From: Desulfobacteraceae bacterium
Lineage (GTDB): Bacteria; Desulfobacterota; Desulfobacteria; Desulfobacterales; Desulfosarcinaceae
NCBI GenBank assembly: GCA_024230435.1
Contig: JAAERL010001058.1
Span: 1-34,173, forward strand
Reading direction: 5' to 3'
DNA: 34,173 nt
In this document: piece after piece, positions 1 through 29,112 of the stretch
Numbering within the stretch: position 1 is the first letter of the stretch
How the letters are laid out: each line of letters begins with the position of its first letter
Notes under the pieces: model-generated
What the model was told of the DNA's origin: nothing
Seen by the model: only the letters and a program-made list of their open reading frames with translations
Databases searched by the model: none
Translations under genes and position numbers: made by a program

Positions 1-153
1 ATACCAGATTGAGCAGGATTTTTTTTCGTATTCAAGGCGCGCCAAAGTTTTGCTGATCAGTTTGCATACTTAACGTATTCGGGCTTTGGCATAACGCAGA
101 AGACGGGAAAAAAGACATACAAGATGGTATATTCTTTAACACAAATCGCCTTA
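1..153 (+). repeat. Dispersed ~180-bp MITE-like repeat, copy A, cut by the window edge
   Basis: This is the right-hand part of a repeat that recurs at 2681, 21378, 23675 and 27486. It carries the shared internal blocks GCCAAAGTTT, GCATACTTAACGTATTCG, CTTTGGCATAACGC and CAAGATGGTATATTCTTTAA and ends with the terminal AAATCGCCTTA. The left terminal inverted repeat lies outside the window. No coding potential is seen, so it is probably a non-autonomous element. Confidence 0.8.
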
Positions 154-21377: not shown

Positions 21378-21557
21378 TTAGGCGATTAGCGAAAAAAACA
21401 TTAGCATCTTAACAGATACCATATTGGGCTTATATTTTTTTTCGCCTTCAAGGCATGCCAAAGTTTGCATACTTTACGTATTCGCACCTTTGGCATAACA
21501 CACAAGACGGAAAAAAAGACATGCAAGATGGTATATCATTTAACACAAATCGCCTTG
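21378..21557 (+). repeat. Dispersed MITE-like repeat, copy C, full length
   Basis: This 180-bp copy begins TTAGGCGATT and ends AAATCGCCTTG. It shares all internal blocks with copy B, including AACAGATACCATATTGGGCT and ACCTTTGGCATAACACACAA, and differs at scattered single positions. It lies between tetR and the DUF6288-like gene, with no obvious target duplication longer than 2-3 bases. Confidence 0.85.
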
Positions 21558-26269: not shown

Positions 26270-27184
26270 CTACATAATGACCCCTTTATTTATGCCTTCA
26301 GATATTTGTATTTTTGTACAATCTGAAAGATTTAATGTCTTTTTAATATGATAGGCGATGTTTTCAATAGTGCTTTCAACAGGCAGCCAGTTTAATATGC
26401 TATTGGGTGCTATAATCGCAACCGGGCCTTTTGTACCTCTATACTCTATCAGAACTGTATCGTGAATGTTTTTCAACTGTGGAAAATAGTCTGAAAGATC
26501 TTTGTATAAATTGCTGTTCTCAGGTGCGGTTTTATAAGATTCTGAAACAAAAAATGAGTTGTTGATAATTTTAAGGACTTTGGATGTCAGATCATAATCT
26601 AATTTTCCCTTAGTAAATATGCTAAGCATTCCGCTGTGGCCATGAAATTTTTGACAGTTACCCTGATGATTTTTTAATATATGATTATAAGACCAATATG
26701 TATTTTTATTTGAATAATCATTTAATTTCACTTTAAGTGATACGATGTTTTCCGGGCATAGTTCAAGAATAGAGTCCGCCAATAAGATTTCAAGGTTTTT
26801 CTTTATCTCTTTTTCAGTTACCATTGAATCTTCAAGCACAACAATGGTATCTTCAAATGTATTCATTGCAAACAACGATGGGCCGGAACTTGTAGTTATA
26901 TTTTCAGCTACGAGAAATTTTATATCTGAGATTTTAATCACAGAGGATTTTCTTGTAATAATTTTATGATCATATTGCTCTAAAATTTTTTTTGCTAATT
27001 TTTTGGCGTAACTAAAATCTAAGATTACATTATTATCATCATTGACTTTTCCTGCCCATTCAATATCAACTTTCCAACTTTGGCCCCTTGGCCCGATTTC
27101 GGGTAAAAGAAGGGCGCAGTCAATGTTGGTTACATCGTTAGTAAAGATTTTAATTTGGTTTGATTCAATCATCTGGCATGACAT
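26270..27184 (-). CDS. Two-domain PTPS/6-carboxytetrahydropterin synthase-like protein
   Basis: This 304-residue protein appears to be two T-fold halves. The first (about 10-155) has GPRGQSWKVDIEWAGKV and VILDFSYAKKLAKKILEQYD, the PTPS beta-strand and DFxxLK pattern, but lacks the zinc site. The second (about 160-304) has YNHILKNHQGNCQKFHGHSG: His168, His181 and His183 fit the zinc triad and Cys177 the catalytic cysteine of QueD (CxxxHGH). QueD/PTPS enzymes turn dihydroneopterin triphosphate, made by GTP cyclohydrolase I, into a pterin. folE lies 1.3 kb upstream on the same strand, separated by two insertions. QueD is normally about 120-150 residues, so this is a fusion; a pterin or deazapurine product is an inference. 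Confidence 0.8.
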   Translation of the reverse strand: MSCQMIESNQIKIFTNDVTNIDCALLLPEIGPRGQSWKVDIEWAGKVNDDNNVILDFSYAKKLAKKILEQYDHKIITRKSSVIKISDIKFLVAENITTSSGPSLFAMNTFEDTIVVLEDSMVTEKEIKKNLEILLADSILELCPENIVSLKVKLNDYSNKNTYWSYNHILKNHQGNCQKFHGHSGMLSIFTKGKLDYDLTSKVLKIINNSFFVSESYKTAPENSNLYKDLSDYFPQLKNIHDTVLIEYRGTKGPVAIIAPNSILNWLPVESTIENIAYHIKKTLNLSDCTKIQISEGINKGVIM

Positions 27185-27231
27185 AATATATTTTTCCTTT
27201 TTTAGCTTAGTAAGCGGTTTTGAAACCGATT

Positions 27232-27836
27232 CTAGTTGTTACTGAATTCGCACCATGGAAACACTACCCAGTCCTTAACTTTTTTCCGATAATTTCAGCC
27301 TCGTTATCGATATTCATGCCGTTATAATTTGCAAGATTCGCAACTATCAAAGCGCTTGTAACGTTGGCGCCAAACTCGGAAATTTTATTTTTTCCAAAAT
27401 CCAAGTCGATCCTTCACCAATAATATCATCAACGAGCAGCACGTTTTTACCTTTGATATTTTCAAGGTTGGCTGTATAGGTTAGCTTAGGCGATTTGCAG
27501 TTAAAGAATATACCATCTTGCATGTCTTTTTCCCCATCTTGTATGTTATGCTAAAGGTGCGAATACGTAAAGTATGCAAACTTTGGCATGTTTTGAAGAC
27601 GAAAAAAAATCTAAGCCCAATATGGTACCTGTTAAGATGCTATATTTTTTTCCGCCAATCACCTTAGAGGAATTTTACCGAATGGCTGCTGTCACTTGCC
27701 GTTCGGATTACACCAATAGATCCGAAATCGCGCACATTCATCAAATGAGACAAATGCACACCGATAATAAGCCCTACTCTGGATATTCCAATTATTTTAT
27801 CAAATTTATTTTTGAGTAATTTTTTTCTATAAAACG
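27232..27836 (-). pseudogene. Phosphoribosyltransferase gene broken by a repeat copy and an IscB element
   Basis: Two pieces of one type I phosphoribosyltransferase flank repeat copy E. The 5' piece (27836-27667) reads FDKIIGISRVGLIIGVHL and MNVRDFGSIGVIRTASDS. The 3' piece (27485-27232) reads NIKGKNVLLVDDIIGEGST, with the PRPP-binding VDD motif, then after a one-base frameshift FGANVTSALIVANLANYNG and KDWVVFPW before TAG at 27234. The pattern resembles xanthine/hypoxanthine-type enzymes. The N-terminal ~25 residues are missing and the reading frame stops at the border of the IscB element. It is non-functional. It sits between folE and the PTPS gene on the same strand, so it was probably part of that operon. 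Confidence 0.85.
27486..27666 (-). repeat. Dispersed MITE-like repeat, copy E, inverted and inside a gene
   Basis: This 181-bp copy lies in the opposite orientation to the others. In plus-strand reading it begins TTAGGCGATTTGCAGTTAAA and ends CCGCCAATCACCTTA. It interrupts a phosphoribosyltransferase frame, which proves that the repeat inserts as a discrete unit. Candidate target duplications (TTAG or CTA) are too short to decide by eye. Confidence 0.88.
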
Positions 27837-27838
27837 AT

Positions 27839-27885
27839 GAGGCGAGAAAACCCCAAGGTCTTTAGCCTTGGGGATGAATCGCCTC
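27839..27885. terminator. Terminal hairpin of the IscB element
   Basis: Nested stem: an outer 7-bp GAGGCGA/TCGCCTC and an inner perfect 8-bp CCCCAAGG/CCTTGGGG around a 7-base loop (27851-27873). On the minus strand the inner stem is followed by TTTTC, so it may also end iscB transcription. Such imperfect terminal hairpins are recognised by IS200/IS605-type TnpA. Confidence 0.75.
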
Positions 27886-27892
27886 TGTGCTA

Positions 27893-28177
27893 TTATCCCT
27901 GTGATTGAATATATTTGCTTACAGTATCAATTGACGCTTTTTCAATCGAACAACAAAAATATCCATCACTCCAAATCGAATAACCGATATTTGAATATCC
28001 GGCATCGATTCCCAGGATTAATTCCTGCTTTGTTTGCTCAGCAGGGTATTTGAGTTGAATGGTAAACGCACTGTGGCAGACAATCACCGCTTTGCCTTGT
28101 TTCAACAATAATCGGGATTTTCGGCAATTTGCAGGCATCAACGGTCTGCCGCTCATATTTGTGACACATGCAACCAA
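27893..28177 (-). pseudogene. iscB: Truncated IscB (PLMP and RuvC-I only)
   Basis: The 94-residue frame starts with TTG after AAAGGAA and shows the IscB N-terminal PLMP/RRXRR domain: SGRPLMPANCRKSRLLLKQG, KAVIVCHSAFTIQLKY, then the RuvC-I motif LILGIDAGYSNIGYSIW with the catalytic Asp in GIDAG. Full IscB has about 400-500 residues; the arginine-rich bridge helix, RuvC-II/III and HNH parts are missing, and the frame closes after TVSKYIQSQG. It cannot cut DNA by itself. The intact PLMP domain contacts the omega RNA in full IscB, so RNA binding by the remnant is conceivable. The omega RNA lies directly upstream. Confidence 0.85.
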
Positions 28178-28189
28178 TTCGATTTCCTT

Positions 28190-28500
28190 TTTGAATTTTG
28201 GCGGATACTCTCAAGTTCCGTCTCTCTTTACAAGAGAGTGATCCACTTCGCCAATGTTACAAAGGGTTTTTACCGGCAACACTACCCCTTGCCCTCAGGT
28301 ATGTTTAATCACCGGCCAAAGTGCCTGGAACGTGTGGAGTATTCCAGGGTGGCTATATTTTCCAGTGTAACGAAGCTCTCAAAGAGCTTAGGCTAATCAA
28401 CCGGGCTTAAGAGTTACCTCTCAAGCCCCTCGGTATTTAGCCGAAGGGTTGTTGACTCCTTGATCCGTTTCGATATTGGGTCTGAGAGCCAGGGAGCCGT
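28190..28500 (-). ncRNA. IscB omega RNA (HEARO RNA)
   Basis: A ~310-base highly structured region lies directly before iscB. Hairpins visible by eye: CTCTCTT/AAGAGAG (28222-28238), CCTGGAA/TTCCAGG (28324-28348), AAGCTCT/AGAGCTT (28373-28389), GGGCTTAAGAG/CTCTCAAGCCC (28403-28428) and CCCTCGG/CCGAAGGG (28427-28448). On the minus strand AAGCTCTTTGAGAGCTTCGT and TGTAACATTGGCGAAGTGGA agree with my memory of known omega RNA scaffolds. In functional systems the guide is the flanking DNA at the 5' end; here that is the 3' end of folE. The stems are well preserved although IscB is broken. Exact borders need covariance analysis. Confidence 0.82.
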
Positions 28501-29112
28501 TTATGCCTTAATATATTGATAGAATTCATCAAGGTGTTTTTTATCTTCCTTAAATATACCTTTCATTGCCTGTGTTACAGTACTGCTTCCTTGTTTTTGA
28601 ACTCCCCGCATGACCATGCACATATGAGCTGAATCTATCATTACAACGACCCCTTTGGGGTTTAATATTGCTTGCAATGTTTCAGCTATTTGTTCAGTAA
28701 GCCTTTCCTGGACTTGTAATCTTCTTGCAAAAACATCACAGATTCTTGGTATTTTAGATAAACCAATAACCTTGCCGTCAGGGATGTATCCAACATGCGC
28801 TTTGCCGATTATCGGCAGCAGATGATGTTCGCATGTGCTGAATATGTCTATATCTTTTACGACTACGATCTCTGTATTTTTTTCATTGAATATTGCTCCG
28901 TTTACTATTTTATTAATATCTTCAGAATACCCCCCTGTCAGGAATTTTAATGATTTAGCAACTCTTTCAGGTGTTTTTATCAGGCCTTCACGGTTCGGAT
29001 TCTCACCAAGCTCCAATAAAATATTTGAAATACTGGCTTCAATCGATTCAAAATATATGTCTTCTTTTTCATTTTTTAATAAAGTATCGTTCATTTTGTA
29101 ATTCACTTTCAT
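28501..29112 (-). CDS. folE: GTP cyclohydrolase I (FolE type)
   Basis: This 203-residue enzyme opens GTP to dihydroneopterin triphosphate, the first step of folate, pterin and queuosine routes. Zinc ligands Cys94 and His97 in [10 protein letters not shown] and Cys165 in [15 protein letters not shown] are present. Other signatures are [20 protein letters not shown] and [20 protein letters not shown]. The first ATG follows AAGGGA closely; a second ATG at 29097 is also possible and would shorten the protein by 5 residues. The stop codon is directly followed by the IscB element. The neighbouring PTPS gene suggests a common pathway. The protein looks intact and functional. Confidence 0.94.

What the first reader, a model, noticed from the sequence alone, without database searches (positions are those of the whole stretch)
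27837..28500. Orphan-like omega RNA next to a gutted IscB
The RNA scaffold upstream of iscB keeps at least five clear hairpins, while IscB is cut to PLMP plus RuvC-I. Selection may be keeping the RNA, or the deletion may be recent. A short PLMP protein with an intact omega RNA could bind RNA without cutting, a regulator-like state.
Basis: partly seen in the sequence, partly recalled or inferred. Interest (0 to 1): 0.72.

Follow-up and report, generated by a model that had tools for sequence, protein, structure and literature searches.

The report
Core-deleted IscB transposon with guide RNA
This is one of several scattered copies of a bacterial jumping gene that has lost most of its RNA-guided nuclease and all but the tail of its transposase but still carries the guide-RNA scaffold; this kind of derivative is already known, and no sign was found that the leftover protein does anything.

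Summary
A full-length HEARO/omega RNA lies at 28456-28236 (minus, 114.7 bits, gathering score 83), followed by a 94-codon IscB remnant. The remnant is not just truncated: residues 5-80 match RRXRR and residues 65-93 match the C-terminal end of a Y1 (IS200/IS605) transposase. The unit, 28456-27826, is an internally deleted ISC element. The own genome holds six loci with the same iscB::tnpA junction, plus shorter derivatives. Progenitors with omega RNA, intact IscB (439-461 aa), tnpA tail and the same type of right end exist in three genomes of the same order. So the deletion is neither recent nor private to this locus. The fused ORF evolves neutrally (dN/dS 1.06, 95% CI 0.51-2.42), against 0.13-0.18 for 22 full-length IscB copies in a related genome. 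The omega RNA changes no more slowly than the dead ORF. No intact IscB is in the assembly. Best reading: a non-autonomous, PATE-like element, once mobilised in trans and now decaying. The RNA could still serve an IscB in trans; the PLMP-regulator idea is not supported.

The parts
27826..28456 (-). Whole mobile element (631 bp), left end at 28456, right end at 27826: internally deleted ISC (IscB-type IS200/IS605) element
   Evidence: Matches to other loci of the genome begin and end near these points, with unrelated flanks beyond
28457..28472 (-). Presumed 16-nt guide: host DNA just outside the left end
   Evidence: Inferred from IscB biology (guide at the 5' end of the omega RNA); 15 different left flanks among the own-genome left ends found by pattern, the window's included; no other exact match in the genome, two at 2 mismatches, backwards control one
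28236..28456 (-). HEARO / omega RNA scaffold
   Evidence: RF02033, 114.7 bits, model 1-211/211
28185..28189 (-). AAGGA, likely ribosome binding site of the remnant ORF (TTG start at 28177)
   Evidence: Read from the sequence; AAGGA followed by TTG also stands before the intact IscB in L168
27893..28177 (-). 94-codon fused ORF: IscB N-terminus (PLMP, RuvC-I) joined in frame to the tail of a Y1 transposase
   Evidence: Pfam RRXRR residues 5-80 and Y1_Tnp residues 65-93; 53 and 9 external relatives stop at residues 61-78
27893..27985 (-). tnpA C-terminal tail (about 29 codons plus stop) inside the fused ORF
   Evidence: PF01797 positions 93-121 of 121; element positions 506-653 are 89% identical to a locus with a longer tnpA piece, G000:C627
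27839..27885 (-). Right-end palindrome
   Evidence: Read from the sequence; present at the right end of most copies (lost in C136 and C144) and, in related form, of the intact elements L168, L330, L331
27826..27834 (-). Right-terminal motif, TTTTATAGA here, TTTTATAAA in other copies
   Evidence: 10 of 11 right ends listed read TTATAAA, the window is the exception; letters up to TTATA were required by the pattern

Best explanation
A non-autonomous, internally deleted ISC element (PATE/MITE-like) of the IscB branch of IS200/IS605. A progenitor with omega RNA, full iscB, a tnpA tail and a right-end hairpin lost everything between iscB codon about 65-70 and the tnpA tail. This shortened unit was copied to several sites, presumably by a Y1 transposase supplied in trans, and the copies have since been decaying. 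The omega RNA came along because it forms the left part of the element. Shown: boundaries, six loci with one junction, progenitor architecture in other genomes, neutral ORF. Inferred: mobilisation by TnpA in trans, the guide being the left flank, present inactivity.
For: HEARO hit; iscB-tnpA fusion; six own-genome loci with the same junction; 15 distinct left flanks; progenitor form in L168, L330 and L331; shorter derivatives, e.g. a 200-bp form at C21 and two end-to-end fusions of about 60 bp; only 2 of 6 fused ORFs open end to end; dN/dS 1.06 (CI 0.51-2.42) against 0.13-0.18 for 22 full IscB copies in G119; no intact IscB among 7 RRXRR hits. Core-deleted IS605 elements that spread as PATEs are described in PMC3119063 (passages).
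Against: Transposition was not observed and no empty site was compared. No intact cognate tnpA was found, so the trans mobiliser is inferred. Not all six loci are whole: C136 and C144 lack the right-end palindrome, C1044 has lost most of the RNA, C750 part of it, and C644 has its RNA split by an insert; this is read as later damage. The window RNA scores as well as RNAs beside intact IscB, which mere decay would not need, though the copies may be too young to have lost it.
Confidence: 0.9

Rival explanations
1. The omega RNA is a working standalone guide RNA used in trans by an IscB encoded elsewhere, so it is kept by selection on the element family (protecting or re-copying its own insertion sites).
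For: It scores as high as omega RNAs next to intact IscB. PMC9581776 states that standalone omega RNAs can function with IscB (passage). In related genome G119, with 22 full-length IscB copies, an orphan element of omega RNA plus right end stands at 5 sites, with fewer broken pairs than expected (2 against 5.7, P 0.035).
Against: No intact IscB in the own assembly: 7 RRXRR hits, longest open frame 217 aa. The RNA changes no slower than the dead ORF (31/883 against 37/1364, p 0.31). Of the 6 loci only C1057, C136 and C144 have the RNA whole; C644 has it split by a 167-bp insert, C750 lacks part, C1044 most. Six G119 copies with gutted iscB show no pair preservation (7 broken against 8.2, P 0.39). 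The P 0.035 is one of three subsets and uncorrected.
Confidence: 0.12
2. The short PLMP-RuvC-I protein binds the RNA and acts as a non-cutting regulator, or as a dominant-negative inhibitor of IscB.
For: The PLMP domain contacts the terminal hairpins of the RNA in solved complexes (PMC9640706, PMC9581776 passages). AlphaFold2 gives residues 1-50 block means of pLDDT 79-93 and the rest 45-55. The window copy keeps AAGGA, a TTG start and an open frame. One stop was seen among the substitutions where about 2.5 are expected without selection, not a meaningful shortage.
Against: dN/dS 1.06; open end to end in only 2 of 6; C644 and C1044 share a 6-bp deletion just before the RuvC-I aspartate. The fusion was not seen outside the own genome: 388 other genomes of the order (not all candidates were scored, e.g. 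13 of 43 in G119), 53 genome-contig loci, 9 viral loci. In one search some foreign hits run past residue 72 (G131:C111 to 91, G119:C28 to 83, G334:C56 to 80, G293 to 78); three lie in frames of 452-519 codons, that is long IscB, and C28 is a differently gutted copy of another subfamily.
Confidence: 0.03
3. A recent one-off deletion of a local, formerly intact IscB gene.
For: The window ORF is open and the RNA intact.
Against: The same junction stands in 6 loci, the others 84-94% identical to this one over shared parts.
Confidence: 0.02

Closest known systems
PATEs (palindrome-associated transposable elements) of Haloquadratum walsbyi, PMC3119063 (passages seen)
   Same: Core-deleted IS605-type elements with near-terminal palindromes, homogeneous expanded families, terminal-only versions of about 52 bp, and frequent attack by another small repeat
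   Different: Here the parent is an IscB (ISC) element and the derivative keeps a full omega RNA and an in-frame iscB::tnpA fusion
Standalone omega RNAs usable by IscB (stated in a passage of PMC9581776; the original, Altae-Tran 2021, is not held and is recalled)
   Same: HEARO/omega RNA without a working iscB beside it
   Different: Here a gutted iscB remains and no intact IscB is in the assembly, so trans use is untested
IscB / ISC elements with HEARO RNA (RF02033; PMC9755519 and PMC9640706 passages)
   Same: Same RNA family just upstream of iscB, same PLMP and RuvC-I start of the protein
   Different: Lacks bridge helix, HNH, RuvC-II/III and TAM-interacting domain
Nuclease-dead TnpB-like repressors (TldR; recalled, no call)
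   Same: RNA-guided transposon protein that no longer cuts
   Different: TldRs are, as recalled, near full length and conserved; this ORF is 94 aa, neutral and broken in 4 of 6 copies

Membership tests
HEARO / omega RNA (RF02033) | Covariance-model match over gathering score, full model | tested here: met
   114.7 bits against 83, model 1-211 of 211
HEARO / omega RNA (RF02033) | Transcribed and loaded into IscB with a guide from the left flank | not testable with these tools
   No transcript data; guide position inferred
IscB nuclease | PLMP domain and RuvC-I aspartate | tested here: met
   RRXRR match and D58 invariant in alignment A1 of 23 sequences
IscB nuclease | Bridge helix, HNH, RuvC-II and RuvC-III | tested here: not met
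   The IscB part ends at about residue 65-70, followed by tnpA tail and stop; the intact relative in L168 has RRXRR 1-174 plus HNH
Y1 (IS200/IS605) transposase | HUH motif and catalytic tyrosine helix together | tested here: not met
   Only profile positions 93-121 of 121 present
PATE / non-autonomous IS200/IS605 derivative | Both ends of the parent element with near-terminal palindromes, core deleted | tested here: met
   Left and right ends of the same type as in the intact elements L168, L330, L331
PATE / non-autonomous IS200/IS605 derivative | Several copies of one deleted form at different sites | tested here: met
   6 loci with one junction, though 5 of them carry further damage to RNA, palindrome or ORF
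PATE / non-autonomous IS200/IS605 derivative | Mobilised in trans by a TnpA | not testable with these tools
   No intact cognate tnpA seen in the assembly; C627 has the closest tnpA piece, itself broken; C350 has a full-length Y1 match of another type
RNA-binding regulator derived from IscB | Conserved open frame under purifying selection | tested here: not met
   dN/dS 1.06, CI 0.51-2.42; 2 of 6 copies fully open

The most novel reading that the evidence does not exclude
Orphan omega-RNA elements such as this one are self-dispersing guide RNAs: each copy takes its guide from the site where it lands and borrows an IscB and a TnpA in trans to stay at, or be re-copied into, that site, so the element is selected for its RNA alone. 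The own genome would then hold an unassembled IscB.
Probability: 0.1. Interest if true: 0.55.

Novelty: new member of a known kind. Interest (0 to 1): 0.25.

Why it matters
It replaces a regulator hypothesis with a traceable life history of an IscB element: intact element, core deletion, spread, decay. It also points to a place where trans use of orphan omega RNAs could be tested: genome G119 holds 22 full-length IscB copies and a 5-copy orphan omega-RNA element side by side.

Tried and rejected
Recent deletion: rejected by six loci with one junction.

Selective retention of the RNA in deletion derivatives: all 73 HEARO hits of G119 were fetched. In its main subfamily ten distinct deletion events keep the left end and rejoin later element sequence: seven keep the whole 212-nt scaffold (left breakpoints 221 in a 5-copy family, 235, 277, 348, 380, 478, 832) and three cut it (127, 101, 84); two more copies simply end at 66 and 68. 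With evenly spread breakpoints about 86% would spare the scaffold, so there is no excess. Five of the ten lie between 221 and 380, just behind the scaffold; this was noticed afterwards and not tested.

Guide aimed at another gene: no other exact match of the 16-nt flank; two sites at 2 mismatches against one for the backwards control.

Hybrid protein elsewhere: not seen in 388 other genomes of the order (capped scoring in some), 53 genome-contig loci, 9 viral loci or 4 phage records; the plasmid DNA search found partial similarity, within element positions 1-215, in 4 records.

A first per-region divergence count (end) was distorted by misalignment around the C644 insert and the C750 deletion and was replaced. 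The dN/dS counts take the consensus of copies as ancestor (star tree). In one search, 33 of 41 G119 copies with the scaffold were tested (22 full, 5 orphan, 6 gutted); 8 were left out, seven cut by a contig or fetch edge and one (L255) with an insertion.

Full report
What is there. The whole 34-kb window has one Rfam match over its gathering score: HEARO (RF02033), 28456..28236 minus, full model, 114.7 bits. On the same strand the RNA is followed by AAGGA and a TTG-started 94-aa ORF, 28177..27893, and then by a palindrome at 27885-27839. The strand folds better than 199 of 200 shuffles (z -3.24).

What the ORF is. Pfam matches RRXRR at residues 5-80 and, at residues 65-93, the last 29 positions of the Y1 transposase family. 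The 53 relatives found in genome contigs and the 9 in viral contigs match up to residue 78 at most, as expected if the end is foreign to IscB. The remnant is an iscB::tnpA fusion made by an internal deletion. AlphaFold2, given the window protein with 22 IscB N-termini (22 of the 62 loci), is confident for residues 1-50 (PLMP domain) and not for the rest.

The element and its copies. A DNA search of the own genome (6.13 Mb in 1238 contigs) gave 33 matches. Six loci carry RRXRR of this subfamily joined to the same tnpA tail: C1057 (window), C136, C144, C644, C750 and C1044; a seventh RRXRR hit, C60, is another lineage and also truncated, with an open frame of 217 codons. Identity to the window copy is 94, 92, 93, 84 and 92% over the matched parts. 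The six are unequally damaged. The RNA is whole in C1057, C136 and C144; C644 has it split by a 167-bp insert, C750 lacks part of it and C1044 joins the first 50 or so bases to the ORF region. C136 and C144 lack the right-end palindrome. A pattern search of the fetched own-genome loci lists 15 different left flanks before GTCAACA and 11 right ends, 10 of them TTATAAA and the window TTATAGA; the patterns fixed the letters up to those points, and variant ends (C136 ATCAAC, C364 GCCAAC) are outside the count. Shorter derivatives include a 200-bp form at C21 and two fusions of the two end palindromes of about 60 bp, C885 and C848. At C627 a longer tnpA piece with the same right end begins with 16 residues like IscB (E 8e-5 to L168), which I take for a RuvC-II stretch.

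Progenitors. In genome G119 of the same order, L168 has the same left end, a 114.3-bit omega RNA, a 439-aa IscB with RRXRR 1-174 and HNH, a short tnpA-like tail and the same type of right end; the DNA match to the window element stops near the IscB junction and resumes at the tail. G293 (L330, IscB 461 aa) and G334 (L331, IscB 459 aa) have the same layout. In these elements the tail sits in frames of 61 and 49 codons (G293, G334), too short for a transposase, so it looks like a leftover of tnpA next to the right end. The window form can come from such an element by one further deletion.

Is the protein kept by selection? Over 255 bases and six copies, against their consensus, there are 10 synonymous and 32 non-synonymous changes; 10.5 synonymous are expected without selection at kappa 2 (dN/dS 1.06; 0.89-1.34 for kappa 1-6), and one stop against about 2.5 expected. 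The 95% interval is 0.51-2.42; counting each change once, 10 and 28, it is 0.93 (0.44-2.14). Only C1057 and C136 are open end to end; C144 and C1044 are shifted near the start, C1044 also has a stop, C644 and C750 are shifted near the end. As a positive control, 22 full-length copies of another IscB subfamily in G119 (21 of 22 with a 443-codon frame, stop to stop) give dN/dS 0.13 (all changes) or 0.18 (unique, 131 synonymous and 69 non-synonymous); the difference from the fused ORF has p about 1e-5.

Is the RNA kept by selection? In four copies (C1057, C136, C144, C644 with its insert left out) the RNA region has 31 substitutions in 883 cells, the spacer 6 in 232 and the ORF 31 in 1132; RNA against the rest p 0.31. 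Substitutions at paired sites are 14 against 18.5 expected (P 0.07) and broken pairs 6 against 9.8 (P 0.10); the window RNA keeps 58 of 66 standard pairs. That is a hint at most. In G119 the same test gives 11 broken against 28.6 for 22 copies with full IscB (none of 2000 simulations as low), 2 against 5.7 for the 5 orphan copies (P 0.035) and 7 against 8.2 for 6 gutted copies (P 0.39). Cells of related copies are not independent, so these P values are optimistic.

Could it work in trans? No intact IscB is in the own assembly (7 RRXRR hits, longest open frame 217 codons), although completeness is given as 100%. One contig (C838) ends inside an omega RNA match, so an unassembled full element cannot be excluded. 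PMC9581776 says in a passage that standalone omega RNAs can function with IscB, so the idea is not new. G119, with 73 HEARO and 41 RRXRR matches, is the better place to test it.

Verdict. A non-autonomous, core-deleted ISC element of the PATE kind (PMC3119063, passages), one of a small family in this genome. The omega RNA in the window is genuine and well preserved, the protein is a neutral relic, and the deletion came before the spread of the copies. Papers: PMC9640706, PMC9581776, PMC9755519, PMC13180657 and PMC3119063 were seen as passages only, others as search listings; Altae-Tran 2021, Kapitonov 2016 and Weinberg 2009 are not held and are recalled. I make no claim that this form is absent from print.

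Noticed in passing
window 1-150, 2718-2856, 21416-21554, 27489-27627: Copies of a second short repeat (about 167 bp, ends GGCGATT..AATCGCC) found at many of the fetched own-genome loci; it sits inside or against several omega-RNA elements (C644, C610, C537, C136:45k), like the SMR-A elements that hit PATEs in PMC3119063.
   Followed up: partly
G119 loci L245, L246, L248, L251, L260: A five-copy orphan element of omega RNA (full scaffold) plus right end without iscB, in a genome with 22 full-length IscB copies and 73 HEARO matches.
   Followed up: partly
L168 3212-3319, L330, L331: IscB elements in three genomes of the order keep, next to the right end, a stretch matching 18-28 residues of the end of a lost tnpA.
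   Followed up: partly
L157 3155-3520 (G000:C627): A different fusion: 16 IscB-like residues (taken for RuvC-II) joined to a tnpA piece that has, by eye, a HUH-like motif, with the same right end.
   Followed up: no
window 27826-27834 and other right ends: The right-terminal motif contains ATAAA, named as a target-adjacent sequence for an engineered IscB (PMC13180657 passage); it may be the TAM left at the right end.
   Followed up: no
window 26270-29112: The element lies between folE (28501-29112) and a 6-pyruvoyl tetrahydropterin synthase-like gene (26270-27184), all on the minus strand.
   Followed up: no
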